Assembly: GCF_001646865.1 (NCBI RefSeq)
Contig: NZ_LRRB01000324.1
Coordinates: 1 to 64,000 of the forward strand
Reading direction: 5' to 3'
From: Aldersonia kunmingensis
Lineage (GTDB): Bacteria; Actinomycetota; Actinomycetes; Mycobacteriales; Mycobacteriaceae
DNA length: 64,000 nucleotides
The position numbers were made by a program, and so were the translations under genes. This document shows, piece after piece, positions 4,245 through 10,699 of the stretch (its first letter is position 1; each line of letters starts with the position of its first letter). Below the pieces are notes generated by a model. It was given only the letters and a program-made list of their open reading frames with translations. It was not told the DNA's origin and made no database searches.

Positions 4245-7200
4245 GTGCGCCTACTCATTGCCAACCGCGGCGAGATCGCGCTGCGGATCATCCGCACCGC
4301 TCATGATCTCGATCTCGACACCGTCGCCGTGCACAGTGAAGACGATCTGGACAGCCCGCACGTGCGCGCCGCGACCGAGGCGATCGCACTGCCGGGCACG
4401 GGTGCTTCGGCCTATCTGAACATCGCCGCAGTCGTCGACGCGGTCAAGCGCAGTGGGGCCGATCTGGTGCACCCCGGCTACGGCTTCCTCAGCGAGAACG
4501 CAGCCTTCGCCCGCGCGGTCCGCGACGCCGGCGCGACCTTCGTCGGACCCGATCCCGAGCACCTCGAACTGTTCGGCGACAAGTCTGCGTCCCGCCGCGC
4601 CGCTATCGCCGCCGAGGTGCCAGTGCTGGCGGCCACCGATGGCCCGAGTAGCGCCGATGCGATTCGCGCGTTCTTCGCCGACCACCCCGACGGAATCATG
4701 GTCAAGGCACTCGCTGGCGGCGGTGGACGCGGGCTCCGCGCGGTGCGCGCCGCGGACGCCGTGGATGAAGCGATCCGGGCGTGCGCGGCCGAGGCGCGCG
4801 CGGCCTTCGGCAGCGACGAACTATTCGCCGAGGCACTAGTCCCCCACGCCCGCCACATCGAGGTACAGATCGCCGCCGATGCCCGCACCGTTGTGGCCCT
4901 GGGCGACCGCGACTGCAGCGTGCAGCGCCGCAATCAGAAGGTCATCGAGATCGCGCCCGCACCACAACTCGACGAGACCCTGCGGCGCGCACTGCACGAC
5001 GCCGCGATTGCCGTGTGTGCCAGCACGAACTACCGCGGTCTGGCCACCGTGGAGTTCCTGGTCTCCGGTACCGGCGCGAGCGCCGCATCCGAAACCGGTT
5101 TCACGTTCCTCGAGGTGAACCCGCGGCTGCAGGTCGAACACACCGTCACAGAGGCAGTCACCGGCCTGGACCTGGTCGCGGTCGGCCTGCGCATCGCCAT
5201 GGGCGAACCGCTCGACGGCATCGCCCTCGCCGGATACGAAGCCCGCGGCACCGCGATCCAGGCGAGGGTCAATATGGAGACGATGTCGGCGGACGGATCC
5301 GTTATCGCGACAACCGGCACGCTGCACGCCTTCACACCGCCCAGTGGTCCGGGCGTGCGGGTGGACACCTTCGGCCGACCGGGCCTGTCACCGAGCCCGC
5401 GGTTCGATTCGCTGCTCGCCAAGGTCATCGTGCACACCGCGAGCGATTCACTCGCCGCCGCCGCACGCAAGGCAGACACCGCGCTCGCGGAGTTTGTGAT
5501 CGATGGTGTGCCAACCAATCTCGAGTTCCTGCGGGCGATCCTTCGCGACGACGAGTTCCGCGCCGGCGCTGTCGACACCGGCTACCTCGACCGCCGCGGC
5601 AAGGACTTCGTGTCCGAGGTCGCGATGCCGGCCGCGATCTCGGCAACCGAGATCGATCTCCGGCCAGGTGAATTCGCGCTGCGTGCCCCGATGGCGGGGA
5701 CAGTTTTCGAGGTCGCGGATGAGGGCGCGGAACTGGCCGCGCACGAACCCATCGTCGTGCTCGAGGCCATGAAAATGCAGCATGTGCTCACCGCCGGAAC
5801 CGGCGCGCGAGTGCTTCGCATCCTCGTCACCCCGGGCCATACCGTTCGGCCGGGCGCTCCATTGGCGCTGTTCACCGCTACCACTGGTGACACCGAAATC
5901 GATGCGGTGCAATCGGATCTGGACGACGTGCGGCCCGATCTCGGCGAGATACACCGACGGCACGAGGTCACGCTCGATGCCGCCCGACCCGACGCGGTCG
6001 GGCAGGTGCACGCGCGCGGCAGGCGTACCGCCCGCGAGAACATCGCGGATCTGGTGGACGAGGGCAGCCTTGTCGAGTACGGCGCGCTGGCCATCGCCGC
6101 TCAGCGTGCCCGCCGCAGCGAGGAAGACCTGATCGCCAATACCCCCGGCGACGGCATGGTCTGCGGTATCGCGACGGTCGGCGCAGACGAATTCGGCCGC
6201 GACAAAGCACAGGTCGCCGTGCTGTCCTACGACTACTCGGTGCTGGCTGGGACGCAGGGCGCACGCAACCATGCGAAGACCGATCGCATGCTCGAACTGG
6301 CGGCCCGCAAACGACTCCCGTTGGTGTTCTTCCCCGAGGGCGGCGGCGGGCGGCCCGGTGACACCGATATCCCGCCGGGCGCGTCGCTCGACGTGCCGAC
6401 CTTCCGGGCCATGGCCGCGCTGCAGGGTCTGGTCCCCACGGTCGCTGTTGTCTCGGGTCGCTGCTTCGCCGGCAACGCCGCGCTGGCCGGCGTATGCGAC
6501 GTGCTGATCGCCACCCGCGACGCCAATATCGGAATGGGCGGTCCGGCAATGATTTCCGGTGGCGGGCTCGGCGAGTACCGGCCCGAGGAGATCGGCCCGA
6601 TCGACGTGCAGCGCAACAACGGTGTCGTGCATGTCGTGGCCGATGACGAGGCACACGCGGTCGCGGTCGCCAAGCAGTACCTGTCGTATTTCCAGGGCTC
6701 GGTTGCGGATTGGCAGGCGCCCGATCCCCGGCTGGCACGCCATGCCATTCCTGAGAACCGCCTGCGCGCCTACGACATTCGTCGTGCCATCGAGGCGATC
6801 GCGGACGTCGGCTCGGTCCTCGAACTGCGCGCCGACTACGGGGTCGGCATCGTCACCGCGCTCGTCCGTGTGGAGGGCGCGCCGATCGGTCTCGTCGCCA
6901 ACAGCAGCCACCACCTCGGCGGTGCGATCGATGCCGAGGGCGCCGACAAGATGACCGATTTCGTCGCACTGTGCGAGGCATTCCGGCTACCCATCGTGTC
7001 GCTGTGCGACACACCGGGTTTCATGGTCGGCCCGGACACCGAGCGGACGGCGGCGGTACGCCGGTTCGGCCGGCTGTTCGTCACCGGCGCACGCGCCACG
7101 GTGCCGTTCGGCATGGTCATCCTGCGCAAGGCCTACGGACTCGGCGCGATGGCCATGGCCGCCGGGTCACTGCGCGCCCCCGATTTCACCATCGCCTGGC

Positions 7201-7433
7201 CCACCGGAGAGCTCGGGCCGATGGGCCTCGAGGGAGCGGTCCGGCTCGGGTTCCGCAAGGAACTCGCCGCTGTCGCCGACCCCGCCGAACGGGACCGACT
7301 GTTCGACAGCCTCGTCGAACAGGCCTACCACCACGGCAAGGCACTCAACGCGGCGACGAACTTCGAACTCGACGACGTTATCGATCCGGCCGACACCCGC
7401 ACCTGGATCGCCAGACTGACGACGCCTAGGTAG
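4245..7433 (+). CDS. Single-chain multidomain acyl-CoA carboxylase (BC-BCCP-CT)
   Basis: A 1062-residue enzyme carrying all parts needed to carboxylate an acyl-CoA with bicarbonate and ATP. Biotin carboxylase fills about residues 1-450: ATP-grasp lysine near K154 with a glycine-rich loop, and the signature EVNPRLQVEH starting at E290. A biotinyl domain follows, with EAMKMQ and biotin lysine K510. A carboxyltransferase of about residues 560-1062 completes it. Most actinobacterial acyl-CoA carboxylases are split AccA/AccD proteins; this order matches the single-chain long-chain acyl-CoA carboxylase (LCC) described from Mycobacterium avium. Chain-length preference is not visible. GTG at 4245 gives the normal RLLIANRGEIA start. 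Its 3' end overlaps the convergent tetR gene by 8 bp. Confidence 0.88.
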   Translation: MRLLIANRGEIALRIIRTAHDLDLDTVAVHSEDDLDSPHVRAATEAIALPGTGASAYLNIAAVVDAVKRSGADLVHPGYGFLSENAAFARAVRDAGATFVGPDPEHLELFGDKSASRRAAIAAEVPVLAATDGPSSADAIRAFFADHPDGIMVKALAGGGGRGLRAVRAADAVDEAIRACAAEARAAFGSDELFAEALVPHARHIEVQIAADARTVVALGDRDCSVQRRNQKVIEIAPAPQLDETLRRALHDAAIAVCASTNYRGLATVEFLVSGTGASAASETGFTFLEVNPRLQVEHTVTEAVTGLDLVAVGLRIAMGEPLDGIALAGYEARGTAIQARVNMETMSADGSVIATTGTLHAFTPPSGPGVRVDTFGRPGLSPSPRFDSLLAKVIVHTASDSLAAAARKADTALAEFVIDGVPTNLEFLRAILRDDEFRAGAVDTGYLDRRGKDFVSEVAMPAAISATEIDLRPGEFALRAPMAGTVFEVADEGAELAAHEPIVVLEAMKMQHVLTAGTGARVLRILVTPGHTVRPGAPLALFTATTGDTEIDAVQSDLDDVRPDLGEIHRRHEVTLDAARPDAVGQVHARGRRTARENIADLVDEGSLVEYGALAIAAQRARRSEEDLIANTPGDGMVCGIATVGADEFGRDKAQVAVLSYDYSVLAGTQGARNHAKTDRMLELAARKRLPLVFFPEGGGGRPGDTDIPPGASLDVPTFRAMAALQGLVPTVAVVSGRCFAGNAALAGVCDVLIATRDANIGMGGPAMISGGGLGEYRPEEIGPIDVQRNNGVVHVVADDEAHAVAVAKQYLSYFQGSVADWQAPDPRLARHAIPENRLRAYDIRRAIEAIADVGSVLELRADYGVGIVTALVRVEGAPIGLVANSSHHLGGAIDAEGADKMTDFVALCEAFRLPIVSLCDTPGFMVGPDTERTAAVRRFGRLFVTGARATVPFGMVILRKAYGLGAMAMAAGSLRAPDFTIAWPTGELGPMGLEGAVRLGFRKELAAVADPAERDRLFDSLVEQAYHHGKALNAATNFELDDVIDPADTRTWIARLTTPR

Positions 7434-8070
7434 CGCCCGGCGAGATCACGCGTAGCCCGTACATGTAAGTCGTGAGGTATTCGGCGATCATCGGCGCGCG
7501 CATTGCCTTGTCCTCCGGGATCGTGATCAGCAGTGCGTACAGGCCGACGAGGAATGACACTCCGTTGTGCATGACGTCGACGTCGGCAGGGATCTCGCCG
7601 CGTTCCTTGGCGCTCTGCAATTCCTCGACAACTGCGACAATCACCGGGTAGTTGGCCCATTCCTCCGACGGCGGCCTCGTGGTGGAAAAGTGCAGGGCCA
7701 GAAAGTCTTTGAATAGTTTGCGGCCGAGGCGCCGCTCCAGCTTCTCCAGAACCCGCACAGCCTCGGTCAACGTCGCCCGGACGTCATGCGGGCGGGCGAA
7801 GAACCGCGTCAACTCGACCGCCATACGTTCTTGCTCGCGCCGCTCGAGCTCGAGCAGAACATGTTCCTTCGTCGGAAAGTGAAAGAAGAAGGTCCCGTGC
7901 GCGACTCCCGCGGCCGCGACGATTGCCGCGGTGTCGGCTCCAGCCAAGCCGTTGCGCTTGAATTCTGCGATCGCTGCACCCATTAGGCGCTCACGCGTCT
8001 GAGTCCCTTTGGTGCGCCGCTCGGGTGTCGTCGCCTTCAGTTGCCCGTCCGTCCTCTTATTTGCCGGCAC
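7426..8070 (-). CDS. TetR/AcrR-family transcriptional regulator
   Basis: A 214-residue repressor-type protein. The DNA-binding helix-turn-helix is at about residues 25-75 (TRERLMGAAIAEFKRNG, then the recognition helix HGTFFFHFPTKEHVL). The C-terminal half is the variable ligand-binding domain. It is divergent from the membrane operon starting at 8283 and convergent with the carboxylase gene, so the operon at 8283 is its likely target. The start is GTG at 8070. The ligand is unknown. Confidence 0.85.
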   Translation of the reverse strand: MPANKRTDGQLKATTPERRTKGTQTRERLMGAAIAEFKRNGLAGADTAAIVAAAGVAHGTFFFHFPTKEHVLLELERREQERMAVELTRFFARPHDVRATLTEAVRVLEKLERRLGRKLFKDFLALHFSTTRPPSEEWANYPVIVAVVEELQSAKERGEIPADVDVMHNGVSFLVGLYALLITIPEDKAMRAPMIAEYLTTYMYGLRVISPGAT

Positions 8071-8105: not shown

Positions 8106-8265
8106 ACTGACTCGACTCAGTTTTCTTCTTCCCATCCGACGGATCGAGCGATATCGTGCGAGTCGAGCAAGGGTGCAGGCCGAGGACACAACTCATCGGT
8201 CCGTCATGGCTAGTAGGCAGGCTATGACTCAGCGCCCCACGTCCATAGCAACCTGACTGAAGTCA
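8106..8265. promoter_or_regulatory. Candidate operators between tetR and the membrane operon
   Basis: The divergent spacer contains ACTGACTCGACTCAGT at 8106-8121 (a palindrome at 14 of 16 positions), the related half-site ATGACTCAGC near 8224-8233, and the perfect inverted repeat TGACT-GA-AGTCA at 8254-8265, just upstream of the strong ribosome binding site GGAGG of the gene at 8283. A shared TGACT core suggests one regulator, most simply the adjacent TetR protein. Confidence 0.4.
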
Positions 8266-8282
8266 ATTCTTGGAGGTGTGGA

Positions 8283-9029
8283 GTGCAGATCTTGGAAGAG
8301 GTCCAGGACCTGCCCAAGGCGGGCAACATCAAAGCCCAATGGGTGAGCTTGTGGACCGGCCCCGCGGTGGGCGCCGTGCTCCTCGTGGCAACGCTGGCGT
8401 TTCCGGGTTTCTGGCCACCCATGTCACCGACGATGTCGGCGGACCAAGTGGCAGCGTTCTACGCCGACCACACCGCGTGGATGCGGTTCAGCCAGGTGAC
8501 CTTCAACCTGTGCGGGATCATGGTGCTGCCGTTCTTCATGGTGATCTGCGTGCAGATGAAGCGCATGAAGAGCCAGAGCCACATCTTCGCCTACTGCTAC
8601 CTGACCGCATTGGTCAGTGGTGCAACGATTTTCGCGTTGTCGAACATCTTGTTCCTGGTAGCGGCGTTCCGCCCGGACCGCAGGCCCGAACTCGTCATGC
8701 TGCTCAACGATCTGGCGTGGATCGTGCTGATTGCGCCGATCGGCATGGTGGTGAGCCAGTTCCTGCTCATCGCCGTGGCCGTCTATTTCGACAACGGCCC
8801 GGATCCGGTGTTCCCGCGGTGGGTCGGCTACTACTCGTTGACCACCGCCGTCGCGATGGTTCCCGCCGCGGGCGCGGCCGTCGTGCAGACCGGCCCGCTT
8901 GCGTGGGATGGCTTCCTGTCGTTCTGGGTACGCAACGGCGCGTTTGTCCTGTTCATCATCGTCATGTTCTTCGTACTGCGCCGCACGATCATTCGGCAGG
9001 CGGTCGACGAAGGCGTGGTGGCCAGTTGA
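8283..9029 (+). CDS. Multi-pass membrane protein of unknown function, paralogue of the next gene
   Basis: A 248-residue integral membrane protein with about six hydrophobic helices and a cytosolic tail (RRTIIRQAVDEG). No named family is recognised. It shares with the following gene the motifs FRPDRRPELVMLLNDL, FPRWVGY and GPLAWDGFLSFW, so the two are old duplicates. GTG at 8283 follows GGAGG closely. It is first in a four-gene operon with NorE- and NorF-like subunits, which suggests a role in a respiratory or redox membrane complex; this is inference from context only. Confidence 0.7.
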   Translation: MQILEEVQDLPKAGNIKAQWVSLWTGPAVGAVLLVATLAFPGFWPPMSPTMSADQVAAFYADHTAWMRFSQVTFNLCGIMVLPFFMVICVQMKRMKSQSHIFAYCYLTALVSGATIFALSNILFLVAAFRPDRRPELVMLLNDLAWIVLIAPIGMVVSQFLLIAVAVYFDNGPDPVFPRWVGYYSLTTAVAMVPAAGAAVVQTGPLAWDGFLSFWVRNGAFVLFIIVMFFVLRRTIIRQAVDEGVVAS

Positions 9030-9775
9030 GCACCTTCACACCCGACCGGAGCGCCGAAGCGCCGGTGCAGCCGCCGGGCGGCAAGCCGGACGTCAGGTTG
9101 ATGACGTGGTTCTTTCCGGCCTGGTACGGCGTCTTCGGGGTCATCATCTGCCTATTGGCGAGGGTGACACCGCCGCCGCGGCCGGATGTGAGCGATGCCG
9201 AGAAGGTCGAGTTCTTCACCGCCCACGGGCTGACCATCCAGATCGGTTTCTGCCTCCTGCTGATCCTGCTCGGCGGCGCCGCGATGACAAACGGACTCGT
9301 CGCGTATCACATGAAGCGCATGTCGGTGGGATCGGTTTTTGCCTACGGCTACATCGGCGGGATGGCCGTCGGCGCACTGCCCGGCTTTCTGCTCGTCGCG
9401 GTGTGCTTCCTGACAGCGACGTTCCGCGCCGATCGAGAGCCCGAACTGGTCGGACTGCTCTACGACCTAGGCCTGCTGTCCTACAACGGATCACTCGGCT
9501 GTTTCACCGCCGCGTACTTCGTGCTCGCGGTCGCCATCCTCTACGACAAGAACGACATCTTTCCGAAATGGTTCGCCTACGTGACGATCTGGCAGGTCAT
9601 CACCGAGGTCATCGCCACCCAGATGTTCGTGTTCGAATCCGGCCCGTTCGCCTGGAACGGTTCGATCGCCTTCTGGTGGGCGGTGGTGGTGTTCTCCGTC
9701 TGGCTGTGTGCGCTGATCTTCATACTCCGGCAGGCGGCCGCGAACGAACCTGTCGACGAACCGGCACTGGACTGA
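9026..9775 (+). CDS. Multi-pass membrane protein of unknown function, second paralogue
   Basis: A 249-residue membrane protein. TTG at 9026 overlaps the stop of the preceding gene (TTGA), the usual form of translational coupling; GTG at 9065 is an alternative start. A proline-rich N-terminal stretch is followed by about six membrane helices. The shared motifs are FRADREPELVGLLYDL, FPKWFAY and GPFAWNGSIAFWW. No function is known. Tight linkage with its paralogue and with oxidase-type subunits downstream suggests the two form a heterodimer in one complex. Confidence 0.7.
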   Translation: MSTFTPDRSAEAPVQPPGGKPDVRLMTWFFPAWYGVFGVIICLLARVTPPPRPDVSDAEKVEFFTAHGLTIQIGFCLLLILLGGAAMTNGLVAYHMKRMSVGSVFAYGYIGGMAVGALPGFLLVAVCFLTATFRADREPELVGLLYDLGLLSYNGSLGCFTAAYFVLAVAILYDKNDIFPKWFAYVTIWQVITEVIATQMFVFESGPFAWNGSIAFWWAVVVFSVWLCALIFILRQAAANEPVDEPALD

Positions 9776-9785
9776 GGCAATCGAA

Positions 9786-10397
9786 ATGACGCAATCAGAC
9801 GCTCTGCCCGTTCCGGCACCGACGCCGTCGGACGAGCCGGAGGCAGCTCCCCGCGCACACCTTCCCGGCGACGGAAACATGTGGGTGATGGTCCTCGGCG
9901 ACCTGATCATCTTCGGCGGCTACTTCATCATCTACATGATCTACCGGAACATGTATCCGGACGAGTTCCTGGAAGCGCAGCAACATCTCGTCATCAACCT
10001 CGGTGTGCTCAATACGGTTGTCCTGCTGACGAGTTCATGGTTCGTGGCCCGCGCCGCGTTCGCGGCGCGATCGGACCGGCATGAACACGCTGTGCGGCTC
10101 CTCTACGCCGGCGGACTCCTCGGCCTGCTGTTCATGGCGGTCAAGGGCTACGAGTGGTACACGAAAATCAATGCCGGGCAGACCAATTCCGAGGTCTTCT
10201 ACTCGTTCTACTACGTGATCACCGGTGTTCACCTGGTGCATGTGCTGATCGGCCTGATCGTGCTCGGCGTCCTCGTGCGCGAGCTGCGAAACCCGTCGCG
10301 GCGACGGGTGTCGGTCATCGAATCAGGCGCGGTCTATTGGCACATGGTCGATCTGCTCTGGGTGATCATCTTCGCTCTTCTGTATGTGATGAGGTAG
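9786..10397 (+). CDS. NorE-like haem-copper oxidase subunit III family protein
   Basis: A 203-residue, five-helix protein of the cytochrome c oxidase subunit III family, of the shorter NorE type. Typical motifs are PGDGNMWVMVLGDLIIF at the first helix, TGVHLVHVLIG mid-protein and YWHMVDLLWVIIFALLY at the C-terminus. NorE proteins accompany nitric oxide reductases and some quinol oxidases but carry no catalytic haem. No catalytic subunit I or norB gene is in the window. The start is ATG at 9786, 10 bp after the preceding stop. Confidence 0.82.
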   Translation: MTQSDALPVPAPTPSDEPEAAPRAHLPGDGNMWVMVLGDLIIFGGYFIIYMIYRNMYPDEFLEAQQHLVINLGVLNTVVLLTSSWFVARAAFAARSDRHEHAVRLLYAGGLLGLLFMAVKGYEWYTKINAGQTNSEVFYSFYYVITGVHLVHVLIGLIVLGVLVRELRNPSRRRVSVIESGAVYWHMVDLLWVIIFALLYVMR

Positions 10398-10399
10398 CC

Positions 10400-10699
10400 A
10401 TGACGAACCAAGCGAACGCCTCGCCCCGCCCCATTTCGCAGCGGAGCATCACCTGGGCCTGGCTGGCACTGGTCGCGATCACGATCGGGTCGGGTTGGCT
10501 CGCACCGGCGCATGTCGCAGGTCCAGTGCAGCCCAGCACGGCCATCACCTTCGTGGTCGTCGTTCTGGCCGCGATCAAATCGCGCGTGATCATCCAGTAC
10601 TTCATGGAAGTGCGCGCGGCACCCCGGTGGCTCATACGAGCCACCGACGCTTGGCTGACGGTGCTGGTCGTCGCGATTCTCGGGATCTACCTCAGCTAG
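10400..10699 (+). CDS. Prokaryotic cytochrome c oxidase subunit IV-like (NorF-like) membrane protein
   Basis: A 99-residue protein with three predicted membrane helices. The segment VVVLAAIKSRVIIQYFMEVRAAPRWLIRATDAW matches the prokaryotic Cox4/NorF pattern of a lysine-arginine pair between helices 2 and 3 (quoted here as AAIKSRVIIQYFME and RAAPRW). It lies 2 bp after the NorE-like gene. It is the last gene of the operon and converges on the SDR gene. Confidence 0.75.
   Translation: MTNQANASPRPISQRSITWAWLALVAITIGSGWLAPAHVAGPVQPSTAITFVVVVLAAIKSRVIIQYFMEVRAAPRWLIRATDAWLTVLVVAILGIYLS

What the first reader, a model, noticed from the sequence alone, without database searches (positions are those of the whole stretch)
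8283..9775. Old duplication producing a membrane protein pair with a new shared motif
The two unknown proteins share FR(P/A)DR(R/E)PEL..LL.DL in a loop, FP(R/K)W near mid-protein and GP(L/F)AW(D/N)G..FW before the last helices, but little else. Charged residues inside an otherwise hydrophobic protein usually mark function. The genes are joined by a TTGA overlap, so equal amounts are expected.
Basis: seen in the sequence. Interest (0 to 1): 0.5.

Follow-up and report, generated by a model that had tools for sequence, protein, structure and literature searches.

The report
Unnamed third partner of NorE/NorF-like proteins
Two neighbouring, related membrane proteins in this bacterium belong to an unnamed family that travels with relatives of NorE and NorF, two proteins of unknown role best known from nitric oxide reductase gene clusters, and so offer a new way to ask what NorE and NorF are for.

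Summary
The proteins (A, 8283-9029; B, 9026-9775) are paralogues over most of their length (32% identity over 202 residues, E 1e-28), not in three motifs only. The motifs are the signature of an unnamed six-helix membrane family, shared with single-copy relatives. A and B fit one old duplication (49 A rows one clade, 49 B rows another), and their NTGA overlap is kept in 64 of 67 two-copy loci.

They open a four-gene operon: A, B, a COX3 protein nearest to NorE rather than to the oxidase's own subunit III, and a COX4_pro (NorF-like) protein. In 298 genomes of the order, PF03626 (NorF-like) occurs in 34, all holding the A/B family; 48 of 49 copies lie within 2 kb of it. The window's genome has one COX1-type protein and so no reductase candidate. 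Fifteen of 63 family loci lack a NorF-like neighbour.

Best reading: a TetR-controlled inner-membrane complex with A/B as core and NorE/F-like helpers, often beside catabolic genes. The partnership is well supported; the activity is inferred. New variant of a known kind.

The parts
7426..8070 (-). TetR-family regulator, divergent from the operon (start codon uncertain)
   Evidence: PF00440 TetR_N E 1.3e-10; a gene of this similarity cluster lies upstream on the opposite strand in 34 of 97 loci examined
8106..8121 (.). palindrome ACTGACTCGACTCAGT, probable operator 1
   Evidence: conserved in relatives; CTGACTNNANTCA occurs only twice in the window, 0.02 expected
8253..8266 (.). half-degenerate palindrome CTGACTGAAGTCAA, probable operator 2, just upstream of the GGAGG of gene A
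8283..9029 (+). gene A: six-helix membrane protein, 248 aa, GTG start
   Evidence: predicted helices 11-39, 64-93, 101-129, 135-169, 179-199, 211-242 plus a short one at 53-62, pLDDT 85.4; ortholog in all 25 loci
8667..8693 (+). A: FRPDRRPEL motif
   Evidence: conservation
8811..8822 (+). A: FPRW motif
   Evidence: conservation
8892..8912 (+). A: GPLAWDG motif
   Evidence: conservation
9026..9029 (+). TTGA start/stop overlap of A and B
   Evidence: NTGA overlap in 64 of 67 two-copy loci, the window not counted
9026..9775 (+). gene B: paralogue of A, 249 aa, TTG start
   Evidence: predicted helices 21-43, 57-66 (short), 68-97, 102-133, 139-172, 181-201, 213-239, pLDDT 83.8
9422..9448 (+). B: FRADREPEL motif
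   Evidence: conservation
9560..9571 (+). B: FPKW motif
   Evidence: conservation
9641..9661 (+). B: GPFAWNG motif
   Evidence: conservation
9786..10397 (+). COX3 protein, nearest the NorE branch
   Evidence: PF00510 E 9.5e-16; tree of 44 rows
10400..10699 (+). COX4_pro (NorF-like) protein
   Evidence: PF03626 E 3.1e-12

Best explanation
A and B are the two halves of a heteromer in an inner-membrane complex whose other parts are the NorE-like and NorF-like proteins encoded right after them. The single-copy relatives would form the same complex as a homomer; one duplication split the roles, and B changed more than A. The A/B protein is the core and the NorE/F-like pair helps it assemble or stay stable, as COX3 and COX4 do for a heme-copper oxidase (that role of COX3/COX4 is recalled knowledge). 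The complex is switched on by a TetR repressor when a lipophilic substrate is present and serves membrane-linked steps of lipid, steroid-like or aromatic catabolism. Loops 1, 3 and 5 (PPxxP with a short helix; the R-x-x-R loop; GPxAWxG) must lie on one side of the membrane and could form a binding site there for an amphipathic molecule such as a substrate or quinone. Shown by sequence: homology, one duplication, coupled reading frames, four-gene order, co-occurrence. Inferred: physical complex, core/helper roles, ligand, substrate.
For: A/B homology. Four-gene order in all 25 fetched relatives. In 298 genomes of the order, PF03626 in 34, all 34 with the family, 0 without; 48 of 49 copies within 2 kb; all 39 two-copy loci have it. 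Plasmid records: COX3 in the fetched stretch in 15 of 16 records looked at, of 18 found, incl. alpha- and betaproteobacteria. A and B each one clade (100/96, 100/100), stems 0.49 and 1.66. Overlap 64 of 67. Partner COX3 rows one clade (98/95) next to NorE (97/90), apart from the oxidase's subunit III. Conserved charged and Trp/Gly residues. Operator palindromes. Catabolic neighbours: P450-type cluster in 20 of 97 loci, thiolase-type 13, KstD-like FAD protein 8, HsaD-like hydrolase 8.
Against: No physical or expression data. 15 of 63 family loci of the order have no NorF-like gene within 2 kb (7 of these are weak matches and several are at contig ends); one genome holds seven family genes but only one next to COX3, and also a NorF-like gene on a contig without a family match; one genome (G028) has the family and no NorF-like gene at all. 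One NorF-like copy lies 15 kb from the family. The family has no invariant His or Cys, so no redox cofactor is suggested. Neighbour counts had no background control and the loci are related. Charge counts of the loops do not settle which side faces out. The NorE + partner grouping itself is only 92/61.
Confidence: 0.55

Rival explanations
1. Alternative accessory cassette of the housekeeping aa3 oxidase: the COX3/COX4-like proteins replace the usual subunits on CtaC/CtaD under some condition, and A/B is an adaptor that steers or modulates the oxidase.
For: The window's genome has exactly one COX1-type protein, so it is the only heme-copper partner available; the partner COX3 still matches solved oxidase subunit III chains (32 PDB sequences, best E 8.5e-16).
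Against: Up to three differently regulated copies per genome; partner COX3 forms its own clade with NorE-type proteins; at the position where the oxidase's COX3 has Glu, 78 of 95 partners have Asp; the family also occurs without COX3/COX4.
Confidence: 0.2
2. Nitric oxide handling: the module supports a nitric oxide reductase, as NorEF is thought to do in denitrifiers.
For: COX3/COX4-like genes resemble NorE/NorF next to norCBQD in four plasmid loci looked at and the COX3 tree. 12 of 34 genomes with both markers have a second COX1-type ORF of about 800 codons that could be a quinol NO reductase (length-based guess).
Against: 22 of 34 such genomes, including the window's, have no such second type; where present it is never near the module (coordinates); the four NorE loci hold no member of the A/B family (best E 0.6).
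Confidence: 0.1
3. Small-molecule or lipid carrier: A/B is a transporter or lipid-passing protein beside Mce importers and SCP2 proteins, with NorE/F-like proteins only incidental.
For: Some loci lie beside Mce/MlaD genes or SCP2-like genes; 15 of 63 family loci lack the NorF-like gene.
Against: All 39 two-copy loci and 9 of 24 single loci keep the NorF-like neighbour, too tight for an incidental link; no match to a transporter family or fold.
Confidence: 0.15

Closest known systems
[quoted passage not shown]
   Same: adjacent COX3 and COX4_pro genes; the COX3 proteins group beside NorE. [quoted passage not shown]
   Different: no norCBQD nearby; a six-helix third protein, single or duplicated, precedes them; mostly in genomes without a reductase candidate.
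Heme-copper oxidase subunits III and IV (COX3 PF00510, COX4_pro PF03626)
   Same: both partner proteins match these families.
   Different: no subunit I or II gene in the operon; partner COX3 is a clade apart from the oxidase's own subunit III.
DUF4386 (PF14329), membrane proteins of unknown function
   Same: a set of ten weak relatives, one of which passes the DUF4386 cut-off (L135, 33.3 against 27.6 bits), aligns with the family profile at 99.5% probability over 215 columns.
   Different: A and B themselves show no DUF4386 match up to E 10, nor do the 16 profile members up to 0.1; the ten rows were found with the family profile, so the link is indirect.

Membership tests
NorEF module of nitric oxide reductase | COX3-type and COX4_pro-type genes side by side | tested here: met
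NorEF module of nitric oxide reductase | norB/norC (and norQ/norD) in the same cluster or at least in the genome | tested here: not met
   one PF00115 protein in the genome, on another contig (C204); the genes next to the operon in the window are an acyl-CoA carboxylase-like ORF, TetR, an SDR and others
NorE (COX3 branch) | groups with NorE rather than with oxidase subunit III | tested here: inconclusive
   own clade 98/95 next to NorE 97/90, but the branch joining the two is 92/61 (35 of 95 partner rows used, 4 NorE rows)
DUF4386 (PF14329) | A or B passes the Pfam cut-off | tested here: not met
   no match up to E 10
DUF4386 (PF14329) | distant homology by profile comparison | tested here: met
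   99.5% probability, E 1.1e-22 against A5, in which 1 of 10 rows passes the cut-off
Microbial rhodopsin / GPCR-like fold | fold match well above chance for helical bundles | tested here: inconclusive
   best VIA Z 10.6 and 10.9, under the 13 that helical bundles reach by chance; Foldseek, B only, 0 of 238 matches at E 0.001
Mycofactocin-associated systems | genome encodes mftC (TIGR03962) | tested here: not met
   0 of 6 family-positive genomes outside the window's family have a match at E 1e-30

The most novel reading that the evidence does not exclude
The A/B family is the core of a self-standing membrane complex that has taken the place of the heme-copper catalytic subunit: the NorE/NorF-like pair is a general assembly or stabilising module that serves unrelated membrane cores, one of them this unnamed family working in lipid, steroid or aromatic catabolism.
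Probability: 0.3. Interest if true: 0.75.

Novelty: new variant of a known kind. Interest (0 to 1): 0.5.

Why it matters
NorE and NorF are still called proteins of unknown function (PMC13036017, one passage). Here their relatives sit beside one unnamed membrane family in bacteria that mostly lack the reductase, so their role can be studied without it. The same tight rule (PF03626 only where the family is: 34 of 34 genomes of the order) gives a function lead for a family that the annotated plasmid records looked at call 'hypothetical protein' (14 of 14 annotated records).

Tried and rejected
Known-family searches for A and B: Pfam and NCBIfam to E 10 gave only sub-cut-off matches for A and none for B; PDB sequences gave none for A and one at E 1.6 for B, none for the profile up to E 1. 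Fold: rhodopsin/GPCR rows at Z 8-11 dismissed as a common helical arrangement.

Mycofactocin link: suggested by one plasmid with mftABCDEF beside the family and an mftR call in another; rejected as a requirement, 0 of 6.

Regulon: the operator with one mismatch gave 17 places in the genome against 28 for the reversed control, so no regulon can be read from it; only one exact match. Three palindromic one-mismatch places were looked at; one (C92) lies in a region that also holds a similar TetR gene. The operator is absent in L021-L024, L043, L095, L103-L105, of which L043, L095, L103, L104 and L105 do have a TetR gene of the same cluster.

Positive-inside rule: undecided. Literature: searches found no paper on this family in the library; the locus tags were my shortened forms of those shown, so that search is weak. 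Bergaust 2014 on norEF was seen only as a reference title; its full text is not held. A passage in PMC9976466 says NorE and NorF have no effect on heterologous NOR expression.

Full report
What is there. Gene A (8283-9029, GTG) and gene B (9026-9775, TTG) overlap by TTGA. B is followed after 10 bases by a COX3 gene (9786-10397) and after 2 more by a COX4_pro gene (10400-10699). A TetR gene (7426-8070) runs the other way upstream. A and B align over 202 residues at 32% identity, E 1e-28. Neither passes any Pfam or NCBIfam cut-off.

Relatives. A scan with B as query gave 25 loci, nearly all mycobacterial (one labelled Williamsia, as unverified contamination). All 25 have A, B, COX3 and COX4_pro in this order. 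The window's genome has a second complete set on contig C64 and a set with a single family gene on C132. Single-copy sets occur elsewhere, and on plasmids of Rhodococcus, Pseudonocardia, Streptomyces, Mycobacterium, Sphingobium, Novosphingobium and Diaphorobacter. I looked at 16 of the 18 plasmid records found: 15 have the COX3 gene in the fetched stretch, in one of them 2.6 kb away on the other strand; the Streptomyces NBC_00080 record has none. All 14 annotated records name the family gene 'hypothetical protein'. In the phylum sample the family is in 17 of 396 genomes.

Co-occurrence. In 298 genomes of the order the family profile matches 42 genomes at E 1e-6 (102 matches, 63 loci, 39 of them two-copy). 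PF03626, a curated model not built from these proteins, matches 34 genomes at E 0.001 (49 matches). All 34 are among the 42; 8 have the family only; none has PF03626 only; 256 have neither (Fisher p 2e-37, which ignores relatedness). 48 of 49 PF03626 matches have the family within 2 kb; the exception is 15 kb away. All 39 two-copy loci and 9 of 24 single loci have PF03626 within 2 kb. Of the 15 without, 7 are weak matches. Outside the order the rule is looser: genome G369 has seven family genes, one next to COX3, and a NorF-like gene on a contig without a family match; G028, G436 and G669 have family matches (the last two weak) and no NorF-like gene.

Which COX3. In a tree of 44 rows the 35 family-linked COX3 rows (chosen from 95) form one clade (98/95), next to NorE from four nor clusters and a Skermanella relative (97/90). 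The window genome's other COX3 and two plasmid heme-copper oxidase subunits III are far away (100/100); the branch joining NorE and the linked rows is only 92/61. At the position of the oxidase's conserved Glu, 78 of 95 linked rows have Asp and 17 Glu. The window's genome has four COX3 genes, three linked to the family, and one COX1-type gene. Of the 34 genomes with both markers, 12 have a second, divergent COX1-type ORF of about 800 codons, perhaps a quinol NO reductase; 22 do not. The four nor clusters show no family member (best E 0.6).

Duplication. In a tree of 140 family rows, 49 A rows form one clade (100/96), 49 B rows another (100/100), and 42 single rows lie on the other side of a 100/96 branch; the A and B subtrees show the same three subtypes. 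Stems are 0.49 (A) and 1.66 (B). The root is by midpoint and long branches are present, so the order of A, B and singles is less sure than the three groups. The start/stop overlap is NTGA in 64 of 67 two-copy loci (33 GTGA, 29 ATGA, 2 TTGA); two of the three exceptions are single genes that are broken, one (L101) has TAA. So the pair has been kept joined since the split.

Protein. Models of A and B (pLDDT 85.4 and 83.8, pTM 0.82 and 0.80) show six long helices and a short one after helix 1. With six crossings, loops 1, 3 and 5 share a side: PPxxP with the short helix, the FR-x-x-R loop, and GPxAWxG. KR(M) and D...FP(R/K)W are on the other. Conservation over 174 rows is in the observation check. 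No invariant His or Cys was seen, so a redox cofactor is not suggested. Foldseek found nothing at E 0.001 (B only); VIA rows at Z 10.6 and 10.9 are in the range of chance for helical bundles. Weak relatives lead to DUF4386.

Regulation and surroundings. Two palindromes, CTGACTCGACTCAG (8107-8120) and CTGACTGAAGTCAA (8253-8266), flank the TetR/A gap; CTGACTNNANTCA occurs nowhere else in the window (0.02 expected). With a slightly relaxed pattern, 22 of 26 loci (window and L001-L025) have at least one site upstream of A and 18 have two; of 13 further loci, 8 have one or more and 5 have none; in each locus with sites there are none elsewhere. The motif was drawn from 21 of these loci, so only the others are independent. 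Neighbours within 6 kb in 97 loci include a P450-type cluster (20 loci), a thiolase-type cluster (13), a KstD-like FAD protein (8) and an HsaD-like hydrolase (8) (names for one member each). In L039 the family gene sits beside a KstD-like gene and a meta-cleavage set; of its seven proteins scanned, two pass an NCBIfam cut-off (acetaldehyde dehydrogenase, 4-hydroxy-2-oxovalerate aldolase) and the KstD-, HsaD- and HsaA-like ones do not. These neighbour counts have no background control.

Reading. The partnership of the family with NorE/NorF-like proteins and the coupled pair are well supported. That they form one complex, with A/B as the core and NorE/F-like proteins as helpers in catabolism, is inference.

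Noticed in passing
L041 9246-10163, L165 8121-9104: A membrane protein of about 300 aa with no Pfam match lies near the family in two distant genomes and starts alike in both (DAWFFLFWAGLLVVVIALPW / TAWFFLFWAGLLVVVIALPW).
   Followed up: partly
L160, L162-L166 with L161 (genome G369): One 3.5 Mb genome of another class holds seven family genes, only one of them next to COX3/COX4.
   Followed up: partly
L199 1476-2024 and 3125-3138 (own genome, C92): A TetR gene like the window's lies about 1.1 kb from a palindrome like operator 2.
   Followed up: partly
window 8270-9775, + strand: The reading frame of B stays open back through the whole of gene A (501 codons from a TTG); relatives show open frames of about 500 codons too. 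Probably a side effect of high G+C.
   Followed up: no
window 4245-7433: A 1062-aa ORF that reads by eye like a biotin carboxylase, biotin carrier and carboxyltransferase in one chain (no family search run).
   Followed up: no
L078 7756-8306: On a Rhodococcus koreensis plasmid the family gene beside COX3/COX4 is broken into two frames.
   Followed up: no
L182 13132-13362 and L183 13132-13362: Sphingobium amiense and S. cloacae plasmids carry a second COX4_pro gene about 5 kb after the set.
   Followed up: no
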